From Stutzerimonas stutzeri (lineage in GTDB: Bacteria; Pseudomonadota; Gammaproteobacteria; Pseudomonadales; Pseudomonadaceae), in NCBI RefSeq assembly GCF_024448895.1, contig NZ_JAMOIC010000019.1:30892-94891 (forward strand): DNA of 64,000 nucleotides, written 5' to 3'. Both the position numbers and the translations under genes were made by a program. This document shows, piece by piece, positions 4,852-64,000 of this stretch (its first letter is position 1; the number at the start of each line of letters is the position of its first letter). The notes under the pieces were generated by a model, which was given only the letters and a program-made list of their open reading frames with translations, had not been told where the DNA came from and did not search any database.

Positions 4852-5946
4852 ATGACCCCTCTTGAGCGCTATCAGGCAGACCTGAAACGTCCTGACTTTT
4901 TCCACGACGCAGCCCAGGAAACTGCCGTGCGTCATTTGCAGCGCCTTTACGACGATCTGGTTGCCGATGACCGCAGCAAGTCCGGGCTGCTTGGCAAATT
5001 CTTCGGCAAGAAGCACCCGGAACCTGTGAAAGGTCTGTATTTCTGGGGCGGCGTTGGCCGTGGCAAGACCTACCTGGTCGACACCTTCTTCGAAGCGCTG
5101 CCGTTCGAGAAGAAGACGCGCACCCACTTTCACCGTTTCATGAAGCGCGTTCACGAGGAAATGCGCACCCTCAAGGGTGAAAAGAATCCGCTGATCATCA
5201 TTGGCAAGCGATTCGCCGACGAGTCACGCGTGATCTGTTTCGACGAGTTTTTCGTATCGGACATTACCGACGCGATGATTCTGGCCACGCTGCTTGAGGA
5301 GTTGTTCAAGAACGGCGTGAGTCTGGTGGCGACTTCCAATATCGTGCCGGACGGTCTGTATAAGGATGGCCTGCAGCGGGCGCGCTTCCTTCCTGCGATC
5401 GAGTTGTTGAAGAAGCACACCGAGATCGTCAACGTCGACAGCGGTATCGACTATCGACTGCGCGCTCTTGAGCAAGCTGAACTCTTTCACTTCCCGCTCG
5501 ACGCCGAGGCAGAGCAGAGCCTGGAAAAGAGCTTCCGTAGCTTGCTGCCGGAGAAGTGCCGAGTTCAGGAAAACGAGCCCCTGATGATCGAGAACCGCAA
5601 GATCGTCGCGCGCAAGGTTGCCAGCGGCGTCGCTTGGTTCGAGTTCCGCGAGTTGTGCGACGGACCGCGCAGCCAGAACGACTATATCGAGCTGGGTAAG
5701 ATTTTCGATGCGGTTCTGGTCTCGAATATCGAGCGCATGGACGTCTCAAAGGACGACATGGCCCGCCGCTTTATCAACATGGTCGACGAATTCTACGACC
5801 GTAACGTCAAGCTGATCCTCTCGGCCGAGGTGGAACTCAAGGATCTTTACGCCGGCGGGCGTCTGGAGTTCGAATTCCAGCGCACCCTGAGTCGCTTGCT
5901 TGAAATGCAGTCACACGAGTACCTGTCACGCCCACACAAGCCCTGA
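4852..5946 (+). CDS. zapE: Cell division protein ZapE (AFG1-like ATPase)
   Basis: ZapE is a cytosolic P-loop ATPase that acts on the FtsZ ring during constriction, related to mitochondrial AFG1/LACE1. The 364-residue protein has Walker A GGVGRGKTYL (Lys about residue 72), Walker B VICFDEFFV and the sensor region VATSNIVPDGLY. The frame is open from 4717, but MTPLERYQADLKRPDFF is the conserved family start. No clear ribosome site precedes it. It follows trpS, as in P. aeruginosa. Confidence 0.92.
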   Translation: MTPLERYQADLKRPDFFHDAAQETAVRHLQRLYDDLVADDRSKSGLLGKFFGKKHPEPVKGLYFWGGVGRGKTYLVDTFFEALPFEKKTRTHFHRFMKRVHEEMRTLKGEKNPLIIIGKRFADESRVICFDEFFVSDITDAMILATLLEELFKNGVSLVATSNIVPDGLYKDGLQRARFLPAIELLKKHTEIVNVDSGIDYRLRALEQAELFHFPLDAEAEQSLEKSFRSLLPEKCRVQENEPLMIENRKIVARKVASGVAWFEFRELCDGPRSQNDYIELGKIFDAVLVSNIERMDVSKDDMARRFINMVDEFYDRNVKLILSAEVELKDLYAGGRLEFEFQRTLSRLLEMQSHEYLSRPHKP

Positions 5947-6004: not shown

Positions 6005-6997
6005 TCACGCGCTCTTGTGCCGATACTGCTGGCGGTACTGATTGGGCGAAAGCTCGGTGTGCTGACGAAACAGGCGAGCAAAGAAGCTGGCGTCGTCATA
6101 GCCCACTTCATAGCTGATGGTCTTGATGCTCTTGCGCGTGGTCGATAGCAGCGTCTTCGCCGTTTCGATGCGCAATCGCTGCAGGTAGTGCAGCGGCTTG
6201 TCGCCCGTGGCGGTCTGAAACCGTCGCATGAAATTGCGAATGCTCATACCGTGGTCGCGCGCCACGTCCTCGAAGCGGAATTTCTCCGAGAAGTGTTCTT
6301 CCAGCCACTCCTGAATCTGCAGGACGCGGGTGTCCAGATGCAGTTTTTGTCCGCCGAACCCGATTCGGCCAGGGTTGTAGCTGCGACGGACCTCGAACAG
6401 GATATCCCGCGCCATTCCTTGAGCGATGTGCGGTCCGCAGAAGCGCTCCACCATATGAATGTAGAGGTCGCAGGCCGAGGTTGTACCGCCTGCGCAGTAC
6501 AGGTTATCGCTGTCGGTAAGGTGCTTTTCCTGGGTGAAGATCACTCGCGGAAATCGCTCGGCGAACTCGCGGGCGAAGCGCCAGTGCGTAGTGCCCTCAC
6601 GACCGTCGAGCAAGCCGGCTGCAGCCATCCAGAACGCACCGCTGGCCTCGCCGCAAATGGCGCTGCCGGCTGCATGACGCGCCTTCAACCAGGGCGACAC
6701 CTGTGGGTACTGCTTGCAGAGCGCATCAAAATCCCCCCAGAACGCCGGTAGGATCACCGCATCGGCGTCGTCCAGCGCACCGTCGACTTCGATGCGTGGA
6801 CCGCTGAAGGTGCTGACCGCGCGGCCGTCGGGACTCACAAGCATCGTCTCGAACGCAGGCGTAAGGTCCAGACCCAGCTGCTTGCCGTAGCGCAGGCTGG
6901 CCATGTGAAAGAAATCCTTTGCATGCAGCAGGGTGGATGCAAACACCCCATCGGTTGCCAGGATGCTGATGCGTTTCAAGGGCTGGGCGGTGAGCAT
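6005..6997 (-). CDS. GlxA-type regulator (DJ-1/PfpI domain plus AraC domain)
   Basis: A 330-residue two-domain regulator. Residues about 8-180 are a DJ-1/PfpI (class I glutamine amidotransferase-like) sensor domain with the nucleophile-elbow region ICGEASGAFW. Residues about 225-325 form an AraC-type double helix-turn-helix ending in VGYDDASFFARLFRQHTELS. Family members often control catabolism of small amines or amino acids. The target is unknown; the convergent zapE and divergent nfi give no clue. A paralogue lies at 48002-48991. Confidence 0.88.
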   Translation of the reverse strand: MLTAQPLKRISILATDGVFASTLLHAKDFFHMASLRYGKQLGLDLTPAFETMLVSPDGRAVSTFSGPRIEVDGALDDADAVILPAFWGDFDALCKQYPQVSPWLKARHAAGSAICGEASGAFWMAAAGLLDGREGTTHWRFAREFAERFPRVIFTQEKHLTDSDNLYCAGGTTSACDLYIHMVERFCGPHIAQGMARDILFEVRRSYNPGRIGFGGQKLHLDTRVLQIQEWLEEHFSEKFRFEDVARDHGMSIRNFMRRFQTATGDKPLHYLQRLRIETAKTLLSTTRKSIKTISYEVGYDDASFFARLFRQHTELSPNQYRQQYRHKSA

Positions 6998-55386: not shown

Positions 55387-56511
55387 TTACTTCGGCCGCA
55401 GCTCCAGCAACCGCCCGCTGTCTCCATCTTCAAGCACCCAGATGCTGCCGTCCGGGCCCTGTTCGACTTCGCGGATGCGTGCGCCCATGTCGTAGCGGGC
55501 GGCTTCGCTGGCTTCTTCGCCATCGAGCGTGATGCGTACCAGTCCTCTGGCTGAAAGCCCGCCAACGAAGGCGTTGCCTTTCCAGTCGGCGAATTGGTCG
55601 CCGCTGTAGATCATGAGGCCGGCAGGGGAGATCACGGGTGTCCAGGTGATCTTGGGCGCGATGAATTCGGGGCGCGTGTCGTGATCGGGGATGGGTTTGC
55701 CCCCGTAGTGGTCTCCGTTGGAAACTTCCGGGTAGCCGTAGTTGCCAGCTTTTTCGATCAGGTTGAGTTCGTCGCCACCTTCCGGGCCCATCTCCTGTTC
55801 CCACAAACGACCCTGCGCGTCGAAAGCGATGCCAAGCGGGTTGCGTTGGCCGAGCGACCAGATCTGCGCCGTCACGCCGCCCTGGTCGGCAAAGGGGTTG
55901 TCGTCGGGAACGCTGCCATCGTCGTTCAGGCGCAGGATCTTGCCCATGGTGCTTTCCATGTCCTGCGCGGGCGTGAACTTCTGGCGGTCACCGGAAGAAA
56001 TCCACAGCTTGCCGTCCGGTCCAATTGCGAGACGGTGGCCGTAGTGGCCGCCGCCGGAAACCTTGGGCGTCTGCCGCCATATCACCTGCACGTCCGACAA
56101 CGAGCCGCCGTCCGCGCCCAGATCCAGAGTGGCGCGAACGACCGCAGCGCCTCTGTCGCCACCATCGCCTTTCTCGGCATAGCTGAGGTAGATGCGCTTG
56201 TTCTGTGCGAAGTCCGGATGAGCAATCACGTCGCCGAGGCCACCCTGGCCGCCGTAGGCAACATCCGGGACGCCCTCGATATCATGGCTCTGGCCGGTTT
56301 TGACATCGACATGCTTGAGCGCACCACGCTTCTCAGTGACGAGTGCGGTGCCGTCCGGGAGAAAAGTCATGGCCCAGGGTTCGGAGAACGTTGCCCGCGG
56401 CGTGGCGCTAAATGGCCACTGGTCCTGTTTGATCGCCTCGGCTGCGGTGGCAGCGAGCGAGGCGAAACCAAGGGCAATCGTACCGGCGACCTGCAGGGGA
56501 ACACGCTTCAT
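55387..56511 (-). CDS. PQQ-dependent aldose sugar dehydrogenase-like, exported
   Basis: A 374-residue periplasmic protein of the soluble glucose/sorbosone dehydrogenase family. Signal peptide (VAGTIALGFASLAATAAEA), then six-bladed propeller motifs: FSEPWAMTFLPDGTALVTEK, GLGDVIAHPDF, YSGDQF and IREVEQGPDGSIWVLEDG. It resembles Asd/YliI-type enzymes that need PQQ and Ca2+. Natural substrate unknown. The ATG at 56511 after AGGAGAGG is preferred to one at 56517. Confidence 0.88.
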   Translation of the reverse strand: MKRVPLQVAGTIALGFASLAATAAEAIKQDQWPFSATPRATFSEPWAMTFLPDGTALVTEKRGALKHVDVKTGQSHDIEGVPDVAYGGQGGLGDVIAHPDFAQNKRIYLSYAEKGDGGDRGAAVVRATLDLGADGGSLSDVQVIWRQTPKVSGGGHYGHRLAIGPDGKLWISSGDRQKFTPAQDMESTMGKILRLNDDGSVPDDNPFADQGGVTAQIWSLGQRNPLGIAFDAQGRLWEQEMGPEGGDELNLIEKAGNYGYPEVSNGDHYGGKPIPDHDTRPEFIAPKITWTPVISPAGLMIYSGDQFADWKGNAFVGGLSARGLVRITLDGEEASEAARYDMGARIREVEQGPDGSIWVLEDGDSGRLLELRPK

Positions 56512-56593
56512 GACCATCCTCTCCTCGAAAGTTGGAGCTCAACGTTACTGCGCAAGGCGCGCTCAGTTGAGCCTGGATTTGTTACGCGACGCG

Positions 56594-57119: not shown

Positions 57120-58415
57120 CTACTGGTTACGGGTCACTCGCCAGACCACATTGGCAAGATCGTCCGCCACAATCACCGCGCCTTTCGGGTCGACGGTCAC
57201 CCCAACAGGCCGGCCACGGGTCTTGCCCTCATCGGTGCGAAAGCCCGTCACGAAATCAACCGGCTCGCCCGAAGGTCGCCCATTACTGAACGGTACGAAG
57301 ACCACCTTGTAGCCCGACGGATCCTCACGGTTCCAGCTTCCGTGCTCACCGACGAACGCGCCGTCGGCAAACTGCTCGCCCATTTCCGGTATGGAAAAGT
57401 CCACTCCAAGGGCGGCAACGTGCGCGCCTAGCGCATAGTCCGGCGTAATCGCTGCGTCGACCTTGTCCGGATCCTGTGGACGCACCCGGTCATCGACGTT
57501 CTGGCCCCAGTAGCTGTAAGGCCAGCCGTAAAAGCCGCCCTCCTTAACCGATGTCAGGTAATCCGGTACCAGGTCTTCACCCAGTTCGTCCCGCTCATTC
57601 ACCACCGCCCACAACTCATCGGAACCCGGCTGAATGGTCAATGCGGTCGGGTTGCGCAGGCCGGTCGCGTAGGGCTTGTGAGCGCCCGTCTCGGCATTGA
57701 TCTGCCAGACCACGGCGCGATCAACTTCAGCCGCCATCCCACGCTCAGTGATGTTGCTGTTGGAACCGATGCCGACGTAGAGGTACTGGCCATCCGGGCT
57801 GATGGTCATCGCCTTGGTCCAGTGGTGGTTGATCTCCGAAGGCAGGTCGGTGACCTTGACCGGCTCACCGCTGGCCTCCGTCTGGCCCTCTTCATAATCG
57901 AACCGCACCAGCGCGTCCTGATTGGCGACATACAGATTGCCCTCGTGGAAGGCCAGGCCGTACGGCGCGTTGAGATCGTCGGCGAATACCGTCTGCACCT
58001 CGTAGGTGCCATCACCATCGGCGTCTCGCAGCAAGGTCAGGCGGTCACCACCTTTGACCGAGGTAACGCCTTTCGACTTGATATAACCGGCGATCACGTC
58101 CTTCGGCTTGAGCTTTGGCGCGTTACCGCCTTTACCTTCGGCCACGAGGATGTCGCCGTTGGGCAACACCAACGTCTGGCGTGGAATCTTCAGGTCAGTG
58201 GCAATCGCCGTGACTGTGAAGTTATCCGGAACCGTCGGAACCGCGTCACCCCAGGGCGACGGCTCGGCGATCTTCATGCTGGGCAGCAGCCCGCGTTCAG
58301 GCTCCGGCAGCTTGGGATTGGCGCCATACAGCTGCGCCGAATCCTCGTCGTCACTGCCGCAGGCCGCCAGGAAAATCGACATCGTCAGAACGGAGAGAGC
58401 GCTCGAATGCTTCAT
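57120..58415 (-). CDS. PQQ-type sorbosone/sugar dehydrogenase lipoprotein
   Basis: A 431-residue lipoprotein (signal SVLTMSIFLAACGSDDED, lipid on the Cys) of the sorbosone dehydrogenase-like propeller family. Motifs: TDLKIPRQTLVLPNGDILVA, NAPYGLAFHEGNLYVANQ, NPTALTIQPGSDELWAVVNE, FVGEHGSWNREDPSGYKVVF. Overlaps the DUF2231 gene by four bases (ATGA), so they form an operon that may carry electrons from the enzyme to the membrane. Confidence 0.9.
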   Translation of the reverse strand: MKHSSALSVLTMSIFLAACGSDDEDSAQLYGANPKLPEPERGLLPSMKIAEPSPWGDAVPTVPDNFTVTAIATDLKIPRQTLVLPNGDILVAEGKGGNAPKLKPKDVIAGYIKSKGVTSVKGGDRLTLLRDADGDGTYEVQTVFADDLNAPYGLAFHEGNLYVANQDALVRFDYEEGQTEASGEPVKVTDLPSEINHHWTKAMTISPDGQYLYVGIGSNSNITERGMAAEVDRAVVWQINAETGAHKPYATGLRNPTALTIQPGSDELWAVVNERDELGEDLVPDYLTSVKEGGFYGWPYSYWGQNVDDRVRPQDPDKVDAAITPDYALGAHVAALGVDFSIPEMGEQFADGAFVGEHGSWNREDPSGYKVVFVPFSNGRPSGEPVDFVTGFRTDEGKTRGRPVGVTVDPKGAVIVADDLANVVWRVTRNQ

Positions 58416-58861
58416 GCTTCACCTCCATCACGCAGGTTGCTAAGGCCGATCCACGTCGCGGCACAGGCGAGCACCGCAACGATCACTGACAGCACCAGCC
58501 CGGTAGGCATGATTGCCCAGGCATCCTTGGCGTGCTGCAGCGCATTAATGAAACCCAGCACCCAGGTCGCGGCAAGCAGCAGGAAATAAACTAGCGGTCG
58601 GCCCGTCTTGTGCCTGGCCCGGATCAGATTGACCAGGGCGAACACGATGGCCAACCCGCAGAAGACCAGCCCCCCGGCGATCAGCCAGGACGAGAAATCG
58701 CTCCACTGAATCTCATAGCTGCGGAAATAAGCGATATCCGTCAAAAGGGCGCCGAGAAACAGCGGGACGGTGCCGGCAAGCAAGGTCGCATGCAGCGGGT
58801 TCGGAACGTGTCGGGAGATGCTGTGTGTCGTGTGCTGAGTGTTGTGGGTAATAACGGTCAC
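58412..58861 (-). CDS. DUF2231 membrane protein
   Basis: A 149-residue protein with four membrane helices (about residues 22-45, 58-80, 88-108, 117-140) and the DUF2231 start HVPNPLHATLLAGTVPLFLG. The family often lies beside haem or PQQ proteins, and has been proposed as a membrane redox partner. It is the first gene of the two-gene operon with the lipoprotein sugar dehydrogenase. The 180 bases between this gene and the RidA gene show nothing clear. Confidence 0.85.
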   Translation of the reverse strand: MTVITHNTQHTTHSISRHVPNPLHATLLAGTVPLFLGALLTDIAYFRSYEIQWSDFSSWLIAGGLVFCGLAIVFALVNLIRARHKTGRPLVYFLLLAATWVLGFINALQHAKDAWAIMPTGLVLSVIVAVLACAATWIGLSNLRDGGEA

Positions 58862-59041
58862 GAAGGCTTCCTCATCGCTGACACAACCCAGGCCTGACGC
58901 GTTGCGCGGATGCGCTGGCTACCCGGGTCGCTCTGACTGTGCTTAAAAGGGGATCGTGCCGTTGCGGTGTTAGTTCACTCGGATCGACGAGCCGGAGTGT
59001 TGTTAATGGACTGATTGGCAGCAAGCAATGCCGTTTGTGAT

Positions 59042-59437
59042 TCAGCGTTGATCGGTCGAATAGGCGGTTAAATTCATGGTCATGAGCGCCCCCGACTTTG
59101 GCAGGTCTGCCACGCAAATCACGGTGCGGGCCGGCCGATGTGTACCGAATGCCTCTGCATATGCGCGGTTCATTTCGGCAAAGTCTTCGACATGTTTCAG
59201 GTAAACATGGACGTGCATCACCTCGCTGAGCGAGGACCCGATCCCCGTTAACATCGTTCTGAAGTTACCCACGATCTGTTTCGCTTGGCTGTATGCGTCG
59301 GGTCCAGCCAACAGCGAAGTAATTGGATCAACGCCGGGCGTGCCTGAGATGCTGATAAACGGACCAACTCTGGCGATGTGGCTGTAGGGGCCGATGGGCT
59401 CAAACATCCCCGATGGTGTGAGGGTTTCAATTTGCAT
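59042..59437 (-). CDS. RidA-family protein (YjgF/YER057c)
   Basis: A 131-residue RidA-fold protein: GPYSHIARVGPFISISGTPG, YSQAKQIVGNFRTML, YLKHVEDFAEMNRAYAEAFG and the late Arg in PARTVICVADLPK, which in active RidA binds the imine substrate. Canonical RidA members hydrolyse reactive 2-aminoacrylate; a role of this copy is not known. Start ATG at 59437 gives the family length; the open frame runs to 59539. Codon use is slightly lower-GC than the left side. No attC flanks it, so it lies outside the recognisable cassettes. Confidence 0.87.
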   Translation of the reverse strand: MQIETLTPSGMFEPIGPYSHIARVGPFISISGTPGVDPITSLLAGPDAYSQAKQIVGNFRTMLTGIGSSLSEVMHVHVYLKHVEDFAEMNRAYAEAFGTHRPARTVICVADLPKSGALMTMNLTAYSTDQR

Positions 59438-59535
59438 GGGCGACTTATCCGATTGGTTGTTAGTGACAGGCGATTCGATGAGAAGAGTACGGAGACAGGT
59501 TTTCAGTAGATCGGAGGGAACGATGAAATGGGCCG

Positions 59536-60051
59536 TCACGCACCAGGGTTCAGGTTCAGCATCATCGGCTGCACCATAAGCGCCGAACCGCTCCTCAGCT
59601 CTTCTTGTTGTCCCACCGCGGTAAAGCCATAGGCGCTATAGAGGCGGAATGCGGCGTCATTGGTTGTTGTTACCGCGAGGCGCATGTGGGTACAGCGTCT
59701 CCCTACAGCCCATGACGTAATCTCCTTTAGTAGCAACTTCCCTACACCTTTACCCCTTACTGTCGGCGAAACCCACATTTGATAAACGTGGGCTGTTGAC
59801 GAAGCCTGCGCATCTACTAAGCCCCAAGCGAGGCCCACGGCCTCGCCATTCGTTGTGGCAACCAGTGGCAACGCCTTAATGTCACGCACTTCCAGATCTA
59901 ATCGAGACTTCCATTCGGTATCCGACATTGCCGCTTCTTGCTCCAATGTGGAGCCATACGAGTCGGGTGCGTCTTTAAGTGCCTGCAGCCTGATGGATTT
60001 ATATAGCTGCCAGCGGTCAGGGGTTAACGTTGTGATCTCGAAGTTGCTCAT
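59536..60051 (-). CDS. GNAT-family N-acetyltransferase
   Basis: A 171-residue acetyltransferase: TPDRWQLYKSIRLQALKDAP, then the acetyl-CoA motif VSPTVRGKGVGKLLLKEITSW and FRLYSAYGFTAVG. Substrate unknown. It begins right after the degraded attC of the next gene, so it may be an old cassette gene, but no R''-type box follows its stop. It ends upstream of the RidA gene. Confidence 0.85.
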   Translation of the reverse strand: MSNFEITTLTPDRWQLYKSIRLQALKDAPDSYGSTLEQEAAMSDTEWKSRLDLEVRDIKALPLVATTNGEAVGLAWGLVDAQASSTAHVYQMWVSPTVRGKGVGKLLLKEITSWAVGRRCTHMRLAVTTTNDAAFRLYSAYGFTAVGQQEELRSGSALMVQPMMLNLNPGA

Positions 60052-60091
60052 GGGTAAGGCCTTGATCTATTCACGTGAGCAGCGGCGCTCT

Positions 60092-60120
60092 AGACGTTCC
60101 AACGAAGCAGATGGTTAGGT
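60092..60120 (-). repeat. Degraded attC of the first GNAT cassette
   Basis: On the minus strand ACCTAAC (60120-60114) is a good R'' box and contains the TAA stop of the 60115-60618 gene. Beyond it CTTCGTTGGAACGTCTAGAGC (near 60092) looks like a broken L'/R' half. The central stem is missing, so it probably no longer recombines. Confidence 0.5.
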
Positions 60121-60618
60121 CGCGCTGCGATACCTGAACTCCCACAGCTCGCTTCCATCAATCTCGATACTCTTTGAAGCACCATCTAATTCAAATCCCG
60201 CCTTCTCATAAAACCGCCTGGCCCGCTGATTCTCTTCAAGCACCCAAAGGCTGACGGAGCTGTACCCTTTGCGCCCTAAATGCAGGATCGCATCGGTCAA
60301 TAACGTCCTGCCCGTCCCTTGGCCCCAGTGGGATTGATCGACGTATATCGCATAGACCTCACCGGCTTCTTTGTCGTCATTGTCTCGGCTTGGGCCAAAT
60401 GAGGTCCATCCTGCGATTGATCCGTTTGCTAGCACCGCGACTCGTGCTTCTTCGTTGGGATCAGACAGTTTGTTTGCCCAGCTTTTTGCACGCTCTTCTT
60501 TATCCAGGCGGGCCAGATAGCTGCTCGGAACAATCTCCGCATAAGCGATGCGCCACGTTTCTACGTGAATTCGGGCGATTTCTGATGCGTCTGATATTTC
60601 TGCCCTACGTATGTTCAT
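60115..60618 (-). CDS. GNAT-family N-acetyltransferase in an integron cassette
   Basis: A 167-residue acetyltransferase: RRAEISDASEIARIHVETWR, GEVYAIYVDQSHWGQGTGRT (acetyl-CoA loop) and RARRFYEKAGFELDG. The substrate is unknown. Its stop lies in the R'' box ACCTAAC, and its start is ten bases inside the R' box GTTAGGC (minus strand, 60634-60628). These two boxes are complementary except for one base, as in one cassette. It is the outermost cassette with clear ends. Confidence 0.88.
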   Translation of the reverse strand: MNIRRAEISDASEIARIHVETWRIAYAEIVPSSYLARLDKEERAKSWANKLSDPNEEARVAVLANGSIAGWTSFGPSRDNDDKEAGEVYAIYVDQSHWGQGTGRTLLTDAILHLGRKGYSSVSLWVLEENQRARRFYEKAGFELDGASKSIEIDGSELWEFRYRSAT

Positions 60619-60627
60619 ATCTGTGCA

Positions 60628-60646
60628 GCCTAACGTTTGGTTAAGG
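60628..60646 (-). repeat. Half attC (L'-R' side) fused to IS remnant
   Basis: GCCTAACGTTTGGTTAAGG equals the first 19 bases of the full attC sites at 63262 and (after three bases) 61942, but then runs into IS sequence at 60647. So the L'-R' arm survives and the rest of the site is lost. Confidence 0.88.
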
Positions 60647-61120
60647 AGCCCGTACCAGCGACCGAATTGAGCGCTGGCACGCTGAAGATGAGTCGCACTC
60701 TAGCTCGACGAAGTCAGCGGCATTGGTCTGCTGACGGCAAGTGCTTTGAAGACCGCCGTAGGCAAACCCGAGCGCTCCGCCAGTGGCCGGCACCTGAGCG
60801 CCTGGCTGGGCATGACGCCCAACGAATACAGCAGTGGCGAGCGGCGACGACTGGGGCGGATCAGCTGCAAGGGCAACGTCTACGTGCGCACCTTGCTGAT
60901 CCACGGCGGGAGAGCCGCGCTGCTGGCAGCTAAACGCTGCAAGGCCCGAACGCCTGAAAGGCTGACTCAACTACAGCGTTGGGCCTTGGATACAGCTGAC
61001 CGCATCGGACATAACAAAGCGGCCGTGGCGCTGGCGAATGAGCTGGTAAGCATATGCCGGGCGGTGCGGTGCCATGAGCGCAGGTTCAGTGAAAACTGGC
61101 ACAGCACAAAGCCCGCCTGA
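60647..61120 (+). pseudogene. IS110/IS1111-family transposase, 5'-truncated and frameshifted
   Basis: Only the C-terminal domain remains: LDEVSGIGLLTASALKTAVG (helix-hairpin-helix of the IS116/IS110/IS902 domain), GRHLSAWLGMTPNEYSSG, GRISCKGNVYVRTLLIHGGR and a C-terminus near 61120. Upstream, RIERWHAEDE in another frame (60663-60692) continues the protein, so a frameshift and a stop at 60701 separate the parts. The N-terminal DEDD catalytic domain is gone, so it cannot be active. Longest intact frame: 60704-61120. Confidence 0.9.
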
Positions 61121-61361
61121 CGGCAGGGTTAATAATGAAGTGATGGTTCTAGTGGTTGTGGTGAGAAGCGAGACTGTCGGAACAGGCGAGTCCTGCAGCA
61201 GAGCAAGGCCGATAACAATGACGATCTTCGTGATCGCTTGATCGCTTGGCCTCTGCTGCGCGAACTACAGAATGGCCAAGGCAGTGCCCAGAACAGGCCG
61301 GATATACGAATGCAACCGCGATGACGACAGGATTGAAAGAAAGCTACTCCTCACTGCTTGT

Positions 61362-61374
61362 GGGGAGAGTCCAT
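61362..61374 (-). repeat. IS terminal inverted repeat (right end)
   Basis: ATGGACTCTCCCC on the minus strand. Identical 13 bases point the other way at 63988-64000. Confidence 0.85.
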
Positions 61375-61384
61375 ATACCATTTG

Positions 61385-61924
61385 TTATGCTTGCTTCGAT
61401 AAAAGACTCGATATTTTTGATGTTATTGAATCTGAGATTTTTTCAATTATTTCAGTTGTCGGACTGATAACCACTGAGGGCGAACTTGCCTCTTGGCTAA
61501 AGAGTGCACTGATTAATTGCTCTGAGGCAGACTCCTTAGATATTGCTTGAGCTTTCTGTATGAAAAACAGATGATCTTCAATGGTGGAAGATCTATTTAT
61601 GTGGTGTTTTAAGAGCGCGGCCACAGCAAATAAAAATATAATTAAACCGCTGAGCATTACATAGCCAAGATTGTTTTCGGTAGCAATTTTTATTATGTCT
61701 GGCGATGAGTCTTTGCTCGTTAGACCTATTTCAATTCCTGCGCTTTGTGCTGCCAATACATAGCTGCCTGCCTTGTCCAGTAGCTGTATTAGATACCCGC
61801 CAAATATTAAGCCACCTACAAGGGTAAATATGGCAACCAAAAGAAGAGTCATAAAAAATAGACTCGCTTTCCTCCGATGGTAACTCAATGACGACTTAAG
61901 CTCTCCCTCAATTTCAGTGAACAA
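61385..61924 (-). CDS. Cassette gene: two-helix membrane protein, unknown
   Basis: A 179-residue protein with two membrane helices (about residues 17-40 and 81-103 of this start), a roughly 40-residue loop between and a Ser-rich C-terminal tail (SSPSVVISPTTEIIEKISDS). No known domain. An ATG at 61945 lies inside the core site, but AAGGAG eight bases before the TTG at 61924 makes that the better start. The stop TAA lies in the R'' box GCATAAC. Base composition is AT-richer than the chromosome, typical of a captured cassette. Confidence 0.75.
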   Translation of the reverse strand: MFTEIEGELKSSLSYHRRKASLFFMTLLLVAIFTLVGGLIFGGYLIQLLDKAGSYVLAAQSAGIEIGLTSKDSSPDIIKIATENNLGYVMLSGLIIFLFAVAALLKHHINRSSTIEDHLFFIQKAQAISKESASEQLISALFSQEASSPSVVISPTTEIIEKISDSITSKISSLLSKQA

Positions 61925-61941
61925 CGCGAATACTCCTTGAT

Positions 61942-62017
61942 GCATAACGTTTGGTTAAGGGGCGGGCTTTAGCCCGTCCCAGTGAGCGAAGCGAACGATT
62001 TGAACAACTAGTTAGAC
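61942..62017 (-). repeat. attC site A (76 bp)
   Basis: R' box GTTATGC (61948-61942, minus) at one end and GTTAGAC/GTCTAAC (62011-62017) at the other. The centre GGCGGGCTTTAGCCCGTCC is a strong palindrome, flanked by TTAACC and TTCAAATCG, the L' and L'' regions. Orientation (TTCAAATCG near R'', TTAACCAAACG near R') places it downstream of the ankyrin-type gene. Confidence 0.9.
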
Positions 62018-62035
62018 TAGGTTATCCCTAGAGGG

Positions 62036-63139
62036 TCAGTGTAGGGCTTCGCAAACCATCCAGTCCGAGATATTGCCCCACAAGACCATGCCCTTATCCA
62101 CGTGCATACCATCCACGTTCAAGCTTGTGATGTGCTTTGGAAAAAAACCGGCCACGGAGACTTTTACTTTCTGAGGAGTAACCTGCTCAACGAACCCAAA
62201 GGCTCCAATATTGCCGTCGCTAAAGCACACTTTCATCCCTGGATTACGGCTAATATTTTTTTGCTCGTCGAGTGCAATATAAGTAAGTCCCGCCCTCTCA
62301 AAGCTTTCTTTGGCCCGAGCCTCCATAACACGAATTTTTGCGTTCGTTCTGTTGTTGATCGCTACGACAAGCATGGCATGTGTATCAAGGCGTTTTTTTA
62401 AGACATCTCGAAGCCCGCATTTGGAGTCTTTATTGCCTTTTTCCTCGCATGAAGATGAGATTTGCTCAATAGTACCCACTTCCTCTTGGGATATTTCGTA
62501 CCCATTCTTAAGAATCAAATCCAAGCTTTGACTATCGCGCTCATCACCACTTAAGAGATGGTGATAAAGCCGTGTTTCCCCATCAGGGGATTTTTGCATG
62601 TCGACACCAGACTCAATAAGCAACTTGAGCTGGTATGCATTTTTATTCGAGTAGGCAATATAGAAAGGAGACGTATACGCCGGTCCACTATATGACCGAT
62701 TTTCGACTACGCTCCGGGGCCATGCTTTGTTGACGTCAGCGCCCTGTTCGATAGCTACTCTAGCCAGTGCAAGATTATTAACTTTCAGCGCCCGTGCCAG
62801 CATCAGGCTTTTATCACTTGGTACCATATATGAGCGATATTTCTCTTTCTGTTGTGAGAATGTTGGGTTCGTAGTTAATGAGCCCAGATTGAATGGCAGG
62901 CAATAGAAAGAAATTTCACTTATTAAAGTGGCGTTATCGCACAGCTGGGCGACAGCCTTGTAGTCTGTATATATTACACTGGTAATTAGGCCGTTCTCCC
63001 TATTTATTTTTCTTTCTCCAGCTAGCCGCTGAAGATCTCTATACGACATTTCCGTATAGTTGGGGCCGGTTGGCGTTGATGCACACCCAGCCACCAAAGC
63101 AAGATTAACCGTAAGGATCGCCAAAGAAATATAGCGCAC
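62036..63139 (-). CDS. Cassette gene: ankyrin-like lipoprotein, unknown
   Basis: A 367-residue predicted lipoprotein. Signal RYISLAILTVNLALVAGCAS ends in a lipobox (LVAGC). Two or three ankyrin-like units follow (ALKVNNLALARVAIEQGADV, AYSNKNAYQLKLLIESGVDM, LDLILKNGYEI), then a C-terminal part with KVCFSDGNIGAFGFVEQVTP and paired cysteines. AAGGAG lies five bases before the GTG at 63139, and the signal begins exactly there; a TTG start at 63166 is unlikely. No homologue I can name. AT-rich. Confidence 0.78.
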   Translation of the reverse strand: MRYISLAILTVNLALVAGCASTPTGPNYTEMSYRDLQRLAGERKINRENGLITSVIYTDYKAVAQLCDNATLISEISFYCLPFNLGSLTTNPTFSQQKEKYRSYMVPSDKSLMLARALKVNNLALARVAIEQGADVNKAWPRSVVENRSYSGPAYTSPFYIAYSNKNAYQLKLLIESGVDMQKSPDGETRLYHHLLSGDERDSQSLDLILKNGYEISQEEVGTIEQISSSCEEKGNKDSKCGLRDVLKKRLDTHAMLVVAINNRTNAKIRVMEARAKESFERAGLTYIALDEQKNISRNPGMKVCFSDGNIGAFGFVEQVTPQKVKVSVAGFFPKHITSLNVDGMHVDKGMVLWGNISDWMVCEALH

Positions 63140-63184
63140 GACAGCTCCTTTGTTTGTGTCAACCAAAAATAATAATTAGCAAGT

Positions 63185-63253
63185 TTATGATAAATTCAGC
63201 CATTCTGTAGAGTCGCTATCTGTTGTTCGCCTTAATGTGATTGTGTTGCTCAT
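63185..63253 (-). CDS. 22-residue open frame in the leader of the ankyrin cassette
   Basis: MSNTITLRRTTDSDSTEWLN plus LS, then TAA, starting nine bases inside the cassette. It has no ribosome site. It resembles the start of a GNAT or AAC-type acetyltransferase (TLRRTTDSD), so it may be a remnant of a lost gene or just chance. Confidence 0.25.
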   Translation of the reverse strand: MSNTITLRRTTDSDSTEWLNLS

Positions 63254-63261
63254 GGTGATAG

Positions 63262-63338
63262 GCCTAACGTTTGGTTAAGGGGCGGGCTTTTAGCCCGTCC
63301 CAGTGAGCGAAGTGAACGATTTGAACCAGCTGTTAGAC
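63262..63338 (-). repeat. attC site B (77 bp)
   Basis: GCCTAAC (63262-63268) and GTTAGAC (63332-63338) end boxes, same palindromic centre GGGCTTTTAGCCC and same arms as site A, one base longer in the loop. It lies downstream of the TonB-C-like gene. Confidence 0.93.
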
Positions 63339-63348
63339 CTATGCGCTA

Positions 63349-63897
63349 CTAGTTGCCGGATTGCATAAGTGGGCCAGATTTGAATTTAAGTTTGTGAAAT
63401 TTGAAGTATTTATTATAGTCGACTTCGCTAAGATCTTTTACTTCACTGAATATGCCAATGCTGCGTATTGCCAAAATTGCTGCTTTATCAAATTGATAAT
63501 CCCCGCTAGTCTGGGCTATTTCAATTGATGAAATTTTACCGTCTGCGCTCATTTGAACGTCAAGGATAAGTTGCGCTTCAGGCCTTAAGTCTTTCGGTGT
63601 TGTGAAGTTATTAAATATTTTGGTTGTGTAAAGTGCAAACAAGTCTGCTGGGTCTTTGGTGTTTAAAGTTTGCGTTTGCTGGTAGGTGACAGCTTCGGAT
63701 AAAAGCTCTCTAAGGGCGCGTTGCTTCTTAGACTCTGTCGGTTCAGCTGGAATTGAGTTCTGAGGCGAAATTTCCTGTACTTGAACAGGCGTACTAACTG
63801 CTCTTTCATTCCGATTGGTATTTACAACTGTTTCTGTGGAATTGCAGCCTGACAGCAATGAGTAAGAAACAATTAGAGCTATTACGCATAGTTTCAT
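63349..63897 (-). CDS. Cassette gene: lipoprotein with TonB/TolA-C-like domain
   Basis: A 182-residue predicted lipoprotein: LCVIALIVSYSLLSGCNS gives a lipobox (LSGC). A polar linker (about 20-75) precedes a C-terminal domain with LILDVQMSADGKISSIEIAQ and FDKAAILAIRSIG, which matches the beta-alpha-beta pattern of TonB C-terminal/TolA C-terminal domains. Unlike TonB it has a lipid anchor and no TM box, so its role differs. The cassette ends in R'/R'' boxes that are exactly complementary (GTTAGAC/GTCTAAC). Confidence 0.78.
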   Translation of the reverse strand: MKLCVIALIVSYSLLSGCNSTETVVNTNRNERAVSTPVQVQEISPQNSIPAEPTESKKQRALRELLSEAVTYQQTQTLNTKDPADLFALYTTKIFNNFTTPKDLRPEAQLILDVQMSADGKISSIEIAQTSGDYQFDKAAILAIRSIGIFSEVKDLSEVDYNKYFKFHKLKFKSGPLMQSGN

Positions 63898-63917
63898 TAC
63901 ACAAATTCCAAGGTTGA

Positions 63918-63987
63918 GTCTAACGTTTGGTTAAGGGGCGGGCTTTAGCCCGTCCCAGTGAGCGAAGTGAACGATTTGAAGGCTGTA
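63918..63987 (-). repeat. attC site C, interrupted by an IS end
   Basis: GTCTAAC (63918-63924), then the same arm, centre and TTCAAATCG region as sites A and B up to about 63980, where the sequence departs (GGCTGTA) and enters IS terminal sequence at 63988. The R'' box of this site must lie beyond the IS, off the window. Confidence 0.88.
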
Positions 63988-64000
63988 ATGGACTCTCCCC
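63988..64000 (+). mobile_element. Left end of a second IS1111-attC-type element
   Basis: ATGGACTCTCCCC at the window edge equals the inverted end of the remnant at 61362-61374. It is placed in the L'' arm of attC C, and the transposase should read rightwards, outside the window. Confidence 0.75.

What the first reader, a model, noticed from the sequence alone, without database searches (positions are those of the whole stretch)
60114..64000. Distal end of a chromosomal integron with a homogeneous attC family
Sites A (61942-62017), B (63262-63338) and C (63918-63987) share the same arms and a palindromic centre and differ at only a few bases outside the spacer next to R''. All cassette genes read leftwards and all attC face the same way. 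A half site (60628-60646) and a degraded site (60092-60120) continue the series. Homogeneous attC is typical of chromosomal (sedentary) integrons, not mobile resistance ones. I infer intI and attI lie to the right of 64000.
Basis: partly seen in the sequence, partly recalled or inferred. Interest (0 to 1): 0.85.

Follow-up and report, generated by a model that had tools for sequence, protein, structure and literature searches.

The report
Distal end of Pseudomonas-type chromosomal integron
The right end of the window is the far tail of a long-settled gene-capture array (a chromosomal integron) whose integrase lies on another contig; it is of a well-known kind, with the added detail that a mobile element which targets these very recombination sites has hit the array more than once.

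Summary
attC sites A and B are exact. Site C is cut: after ...GATTTGAA, 20 bases of an insertion-sequence end follow and the contig stops, so 64000 is a contig end. The "half site" is an attC split by a 5'-truncated IS1111-type remnant; the "degraded site" 60092-60120 is not supported. The integrase is a full-length IntI on contig C45, next to a sharply bounded attI. A relative joins the two outer flanks across 17 bp with no integron between, so the window flank and the C45 flank bound one locus. The genome has 23 attC matches: 20 on C19, C45 and C53, and 3 on C18, a separate integrase-less array at another chromosomal site. attC pairing is supported by compensatory changes. It is a new member of a known kind: a sedentary Pseudomonas/Stutzerimonas integron with IS1111-attC elements. 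Extra: relatives keep integrase-less attC arrays at recurrent chromosomal sites, as already reported for Xanthomonas.

The parts
55387..56517 (-). sugar-dehydrogenase-like gene (PQQ type by my reading; no family search run on it), conserved chromosomal flank on the distal side of the integron
   Evidence: Orthologue 3.8-10.1 kb from intI or an intI fragment on the same contig in G049, G023, G027, G032, G012
57120..58415 (-). second sugar-dehydrogenase-like flank gene (name by my reading); conserved flank similarity ends at 58992
   Evidence: blastn to relatives; in G004 window 58992 joins C45 7931 across 17 bp
59042..59539 (-). Rid-family (RidA-like) gene inside the segment that is missing in G004
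   Evidence: TIGR00004 80.0 bits, below its curated cut-off 106.25; partial homologue at the distal end in G055
59536..60051 (-). GNAT acetyltransferase gene, perhaps an old cassette gene without a recognisable attC
   Evidence: PF00583 64.9 bits
60092..60120 (+). claimed degraded attC; not supported, only an R''-like GGTTAGG end
   Evidence: no R2 match at E<=0.5; no fold above shuffles
60115..60618 (-). GNAT acetyltransferase cassette gene
   Evidence: PF00583 68.7 bits
60628..60670 (+). left part of an attC (GCCTAACGTTTGGTTAAGG...GAATTGA), joined to an IS remnant; junction shared with relative G055
60671..61378 (+). 5'-truncated IS1111-family (IS1111-attC type) remnant: C-terminal transposase (60746-61120) and downstream non-coding region to the right end GGGGAGAGTCCATATAC
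   Evidence: PF02371 55.4 bits; NF033542 87.0 bits, below its cut-off 140; 82.1% to an ISPa21-family IS; NCR alignment
61379..61390 (+). right (R'') part of the IS-split attC: CATTTGTTATGC
61385..61945 (-). cassette gene, membrane protein-like by my reading, no family match
61942..62017 (+). attC site A (+ strand is the structured bottom strand)
   Evidence: R2 95.8 bits; fold z -2.44
62036..63166 (-). cassette gene, lipoprotein-like by my reading, no family match
63262..63338 (+). attC site B
   Evidence: R2 95.3 bits; fold z -2.96
63349..63897 (-). cassette gene with TonB/TolA C-terminal domain, lipoprotein-like by my reading
   Evidence: PF13103 29.7 bits; TIGR01352 28.7 bits
63918..63980 (+). 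attC site C, left part only (R'' end missing)
   Evidence: R2 72.7 bits for 63918-63991; sequence
63981..64000 (+). left end of an IS1111-attC element inserted in site C; contig C19 ends here
   Evidence: same 20 bases bar the last at the start of C18; same end in the full-length element of G033; contig length 94891

Best explanation
The window ends in the distal (oldest) part of a sedentary chromosomal integron of the Pseudomonas/Stutzerimonas type. IntI, encoded on contig C45, recombines folded bottom strands of attC sites (the + strand here) at attI; new cassettes enter next to intI and older ones, with genes reading away from it, end up towards the window side. At the distal side an IS1111-attC element has inserted between ...TTTGAA and the R'' arm of attC sites (60.6 kb remnant, site C, and one site on C18). 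Shown: sites, IntI, attI boundary, flanks, empty junction, IS ends. Inferred: that IntI is active, the contig order C19-(IS)-C53-C45, the age order of cassettes, and that the IS blocks recombination at the sites it hits.
For: IntI of 321 aa, TIGR02249 496.8 bits (cut-off 265), aligned over residues 8-321 with the solved IntI4 chain 2a3v_A. 23 attC matches in the genome (which prints 20 of them; the other three are taken), on C19, C45, C53 and C18. The named structure is kept in 95.0% of cells with 8 double-sided changes, 0 of 500 shuffles reaching either value, slid versions 26-56%. Variable-to-conserved switch at (C)TAAC|TATAATTAGACACC or a close variant upstream of intI in the 13 of 14 aligned sequences that reach it, own included. 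Empty junction in G004. Distal attC/IS junction shared with G055.
Against: The contigs are not joined by assembly; C53 could belong to the main array or to the C18 array. In G012 and G033 the integron lies on the other side of the second flank gene, so its position is not wholly fixed. Two measures are not above shuffles: pairs with double changes (2; 245 of 500) and further pair types (7; 185 of 500). No LexA box upstream of intI in any of 14 sequences at <= 1 substitution. attC of this type also occur on plasmids. G004 may have lost an integron rather than never had one.
Confidence: 0.93

Rival explanations
1. The window's array is an integrase-less attC cluster (CALIN) and C45's intI belongs to a different array.
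For: Such a cluster does exist in this genome on C18 and in relatives at other sites; C19 and C45 are separate contigs.
Against: In five relatives the window's flank gene and intI bracket one array on one contig, and G004 joins window 58992 to C45 7931.
Confidence: 0.05
2. A mobile integron or cassette island acquired recently on a plasmid or transposon.
For: attC of the same type on 81 of 72,556 plasmid records, 50 of them 95-99% identical over the aligned part.
Confidence: 0.02
3. Ordinary palindromic repeats (REP-like) scattered by chance.
For: The centre is a strong palindrome.
Against: The 20 printed matches and the three lie on four contigs, one orientation per contig, mostly spaced by single genes, next to intI and attI. 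Only 150 of 1718 first-look candidates were scored in that scan, so weak scattered copies could have been missed.
Confidence: 0.005

Closest known systems
Chromosomal integrons of Pseudomonas (P. stutzeri, P. alcaligenes, P. mendocina); recalled as Vaisvila 2001 and Holmes 2003, not read here; strains named in a legend of PMC3108266 (passage seen)
   Same: IntI 88% to three Stutzerimonas stutzeri strains; same attC family in 13 of 80 IntI loci at >= 60 bits, all 13 Pseudomonas/Stutzerimonas; same divergent layout
   Different: Nothing basic found; cassette content is its own: none of the six window proteins tested has a full-length relative at E <= 1e-8 in the loci held
IS1111-attC group of insertion sequences (Tetu and Holmes 2008, Post and Hall 2009: recalled, and seen only as references in PMC11187229 and PMC12444791; ISPst6, ISKpn4, ISPa21)
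   Same: IS110/IS1111 transposase C-terminus, subterminal inverted repeats, downstream non-coding region, insertion at one end of attC (passages of PMC11187229)
   Different: Window copy is a truncated remnant; no complete element was found in this assembly
CALIN, clusters of attC lacking integrase, with recurrent positions in Xanthomonas (PMC12444791, passages seen)
   Same: C18 array and relatives' arrays lie away from intI at recurrent sites
   Different: Different genus and sites

Membership tests
Chromosomal (sedentary) integron | full-length integron integrase with the IntI-specific region | tested here: met
   TIGR02249 496.8 bits, profile 1-315 of 315, residues 7-321 of the protein; alignment to 2a3v_A
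Chromosomal (sedentary) integron | attI next to intI | tested here: met
   sharp cassette/conserved boundary at C45 4386-4390 shared with relatives; recombination itself not tested
Chromosomal (sedentary) integron | array of similar attC, same orientation, with single-gene cassettes | tested here: met
   two C45 cassettes have no convincing gene
Chromosomal (sedentary) integron | stable chromosomal position, not on a mobile element | tested here: met
   conserved flanks and empty junction; position shifted past one gene in G012 and G033
Chromosomal (sedentary) integron | foldable bottom strand with an extrahelical base | tested here: met
   named structure with an unpaired G inside the L box: 94.3% of L-box cells paired, U-A to C-G double change in 3 sites; single-site minimum folds and the RNAalifold consensus do not show this exact structure
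Chromosomal (sedentary) integron | integrase-dependent cassette excision and insertion | not testable with these tools
   needs a recombination assay
IS1111-attC insertion sequence | subterminal inverted repeats and IS110/IS1111 transposase | tested here: met
   ends GGCTGTAATGGACTCTCCC and GGGGAGAGTCCATATAC; PF02371; only the right end and the C-terminal part in the window remnant
IS1111-attC insertion sequence | insertion at one position in attC | tested here: met
   the 3 left ends found (window 63981, C18, G033 L160 8241) all follow TTTGAA; the 4 aligned chromosomal right ends precede an attC R'' remnant. The plasmid ISPa21-type copy L191 is not followed by such an arm
IS1111-attC insertion sequence | guide (seekRNA) segments matching the target | tested here: inconclusive
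   longest matches 8 and 9 nt in G033, shuffles as long in 0.39 and 0.094 of 500, both together 0.058; window remnant 6 and 9 nt (1.0, 0.114); ISPa21-type copy 6 and 8 nt (0.998, 0.36)
CALIN (for the C18 array) | at least two attC and no intI nearby | tested here: met
   3 matches on C18 at E <= 4.2e-7, one of them cut by the IS end; no IntI match in the first 18 kb of C18 and no PF00589 match on C18

The most novel reading that the evidence does not exclude
In this genus the integron is a multi-site system: one intI locus plus integrase-less satellite attC arrays held at a few recurrent chromosomal sites and served in trans by IntI, while attC-targeting, RNA-guided IS elements cap attC sites and freeze the distal blocks into vertical inheritance.
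Probability: 0.2. Interest if true: 0.55.

Novelty: new member of a known kind. Interest (0 to 1): 0.3.

Why it matters
It adds one well-bounded chromosomal integron with both flanks, attI, an empty junction and an IS insertion shared with a sister species. If the satellite arrays are really served by IntI in trans, integrons in this genus would be dispersed systems, and the IS insertions would give natural 'stop' marks to measure how cassettes age.

Tried and rejected
Own-genome search for the complete IS: only the window remnant matches PF02371, and the right-end pattern occurs once. That pattern does not fit the left ends on C19 and C18, which I saw only later, so says nothing about them. 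Guide RNA of the IS against attC: not above shuffles. LexA control of intI: no box in the roughly 170 bases upstream (G055 holds only 109). A REP-type repeat reading: set aside on the distribution. RNAalifold's own consensus misses the R and L boxes, so I named the structure by hand from attC anatomy as recalled; a structure named from the same sequences favours itself. A first model R1 was built and not used. The RNA-family library and structure prediction were not run. Literature: Stutzerimonas + integron + attC gave 0 papers; 'chromosomal integron' + 'Pseudomonas stutzeri' + 'gene cassette' gave 10, of which I opened only PMC3108266; further listings. I saw passages only of PMC11187229, PMC12444791 and PMC3108266; everything else by name is recalled. 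I make no claim that any part is absent from print.

Full report
Observation. The stretch 59500-64000 was read directly. Cassette genes lie on the minus strand. An attC model R2, built from 20 sites of this genome (2 window, 9 C45, 8 C53, 1 C18) with a hand-named structure, finds three window sites: 61942-62017, 63262-63338 and 63918-63991, at 95.8, 95.3 and 72.7 bits. A and B helped to build the model; C did not. No other window match appears at E <= 0.5 in the 389,021 bases searched. The 20 sites are 0.86 identical on average (range 0.685-1.0); 17 are standard and 3 carry GATTAAG in the left arm. I did not measure a mobile-integron array for comparison.

Structure. On the + strand, which is the bottom strand relative to cassette reading, the R boxes, the L boxes with an unpaired G, and a central hairpin pair in 95.0% of cells; 8 cells have changes on both sides and the covariation score is 0.102, none of 500 shuffles reaching any of these three, and slid versions pair in 26-56%. 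The number of pairs with double changes (2) and of further pair types (7) is not above shuffles. Sites A and B fold as single DNA strands better than shuffles on the + strand (z -2.44, -2.96) and less so on the other (z -1.45, -2.13). The minimum folds of the single sites and the RNAalifold consensus do not show the named structure exactly. The claimed degraded site 60092-60120 does not fold above shuffles and is not found by the model.

The right end. The window's last base is the last base of contig C19 (94891). Site C runs to ...GATTTGAA and then changes to GGCTGTAATGGACTCTCCCC. The first 19 of these 20 bases also stand at the start of C18, next to the same attC position. In relative G033 a full-length element starts with that end after GATTTGAA, carries an open frame of 354 codons, and finishes with GGGGAGAGTCCATATAC before GCAATGTTAGGCC. 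So an IS most likely sits in site C and broke the assembly. C53 begins with CATTTGTTAG, the bases expected just after such an element.

The half site. From about 60671 to 61378 lies a 5'-truncated copy of the same element: PF02371 on 60746-61120, 82.1% to an ISPa21-family IS on a plasmid, 89% and 87% to copies in G055 and G033. Its right end is followed by CATTTGTTATGC, the missing arm of the attC whose left part is at 60628-60670. G055 has the same stretch at the distal end of its own array: window 60565-60712, which spans the start of the cassette gene, the attC left part and the junction, is 81% identical over 149 bases to L156 5726-5874. This insertion and truncation therefore most likely predate the split of the two species. 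A complication: G055 has a second attC joined to the IS at about the same internal IS position (L156 near 6668), so that breakpoint may recur, and I cannot explain it. The downstream non-coding region is kept, but its matches to attC are not above shuffles.

The integrase. PF00589 finds 19 matches in the genome; one, on C45, is a 321-aa integron integrase (TIGR02249, 496.8 bits against a cut-off of 265), collinear with IntI4 of known structure, 2a3v. Upstream of it 14 sequences were aligned; in the 13 that reach that far, own included, variable cassette sequence gives way to a conserved block at CTAAC (ATAAC in two), followed by TATAATTAGACACC in 9 and a close variant in 4: the attI boundary. 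G055 starts too late. No LexA box (CTGT-N8-ACAG, one substitution allowed) was found in any of the 14.

One locus. 34 of 56 genomes of the genus, own included, have an IntI match at E <= 1e-60. The window's flank gene 55387-56517 has an orthologue of 78% identity or more in 12 relatives; in 5 of them (G049, G023, G027, G032, G012) it lies 3.8-10.1 kb from an intI or intI fragment on the same contig, beyond the cassettes. In five others intI is on another contig, and in G004 and G053 no IntI match was found. In G004, which also has no attC match, sequence matching window 58992 is followed after 17 bp by sequence matching C45 7931. This may be a never-occupied site or a clean loss. In G012 and G033 the integron lies on the other side of the second flank gene, which I cannot explain.

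A second array. R2 gives 23 matches in the genome at E <= 0.01. That call prints 20 of them (C45 9, C53 8, C19 2, C18 1) and scored 150 of 1718 first-look candidates, so the count is a lower bound; the other three are, site C on C19 and two more on C18. C18 is not part of the intI locus: its inner part matches G055 C21 and G012 at 3.79 Mb, each with an attC array at the same edge. Of 38 genomes with a match to the edge gene, 18 are 64% identical or more; I looked at 17 of these (G022, a fragmentary genome, was dropped, and the 20 at 52% or less were not looked at). Three carry the array (own, G055, G012); the other 14 fetched stretches hold no attC match.

Another recurrent site. It lies between a PAS-domain kinase-like gene and a pnuC-like gene (names by my reading). 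Of 38 genomes with a match to the pnuC-like protein, I looked at the 16 at 83% identity or more, plus G024, taken because of its attC. Of these 17, six have attC between the two genes (G049, G046, G037, G012, G027, G053), G024 has them next to the kinase-like gene only, G039 and G047 have them 9.5-10 kb from the pnuC-like gene with no kinase-like match in the stretch, and eight, the own genome among them, have none in the fetched stretch. The site was first noticed because of its attC, so the fraction is not a frequency. No IntI match was found in the nine second-site loci. CALINs at conserved loci are in print for Xanthomonas (PMC12444791, passage).

Mobility. On plasmids the best IntI match is 60.6% identical (capped at 5000 records), but attC like site A occur in 81 of 72,556 records, 30 of them over at least 80% of the site. 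Cassettes of this type thus seem to travel; the platform does not seem to. In 80 loci with IntI relatives, R2 reaches 60 bits in 13, all Pseudomonas or Stutzerimonas; some of the others hold too little DNA beside intI to judge.

Cassette content. Of the 20 cassette or array genes of C45, C53 and C18 scanned, 6 match Pfam: a GNAT, a barstar-like protein, DUF4145, a deaminase, YcxB and NUDIX. Of the five window genes scanned that lie between 59536 and 63897, two are GNATs, one has a TonB C-terminal domain and two have no match.

Verdict. An ordinary but well-bounded chromosomal integron of a known lineage.

Noticed in passing
L161 (contig C18) 1-2055: Integrase-less attC array at a second chromosomal site, shared with G055 and G012, ending at the contig edge in the same IS end as the window's site C.
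   Followed up: partly
L145 7871-13661, L190, L147, L152, L181, L186; also L150: A further recurrent attC-array site between a PAS-kinase-like and a pnuC-like gene in relatives; no attC in the own genome's pnuC stretch (L178).
   Followed up: partly
L028 4501-4519: Palindrome TGTATAAGGGAGTTATACA over the ribosome-binding region of intI, kept with at most small changes in 12 of 14 sequences aligned (not in L043, L044), where no LexA box is found; possible operator or RNA hairpin.
   Followed up: no
L028 1816-2132 and 2607-2921: Two related cassettes without a convincing gene; the second is identical over 315 bases to a cassette in G049, to which the first is 83.6% identical, i.e. recent exchange or strong conservation.
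   Followed up: no
L156 5726-5874 and near 6668; window 60671: Different attC sites are joined to the IS at about the same internal IS position (..CGCTGGCA..), as if the truncation point recurs.
   Followed up: no
L153 and L160 versus window 57121-58992: The second flank gene lies on the intI side of the integron in G012 and G033 but on the cassette side here.
   Followed up: no
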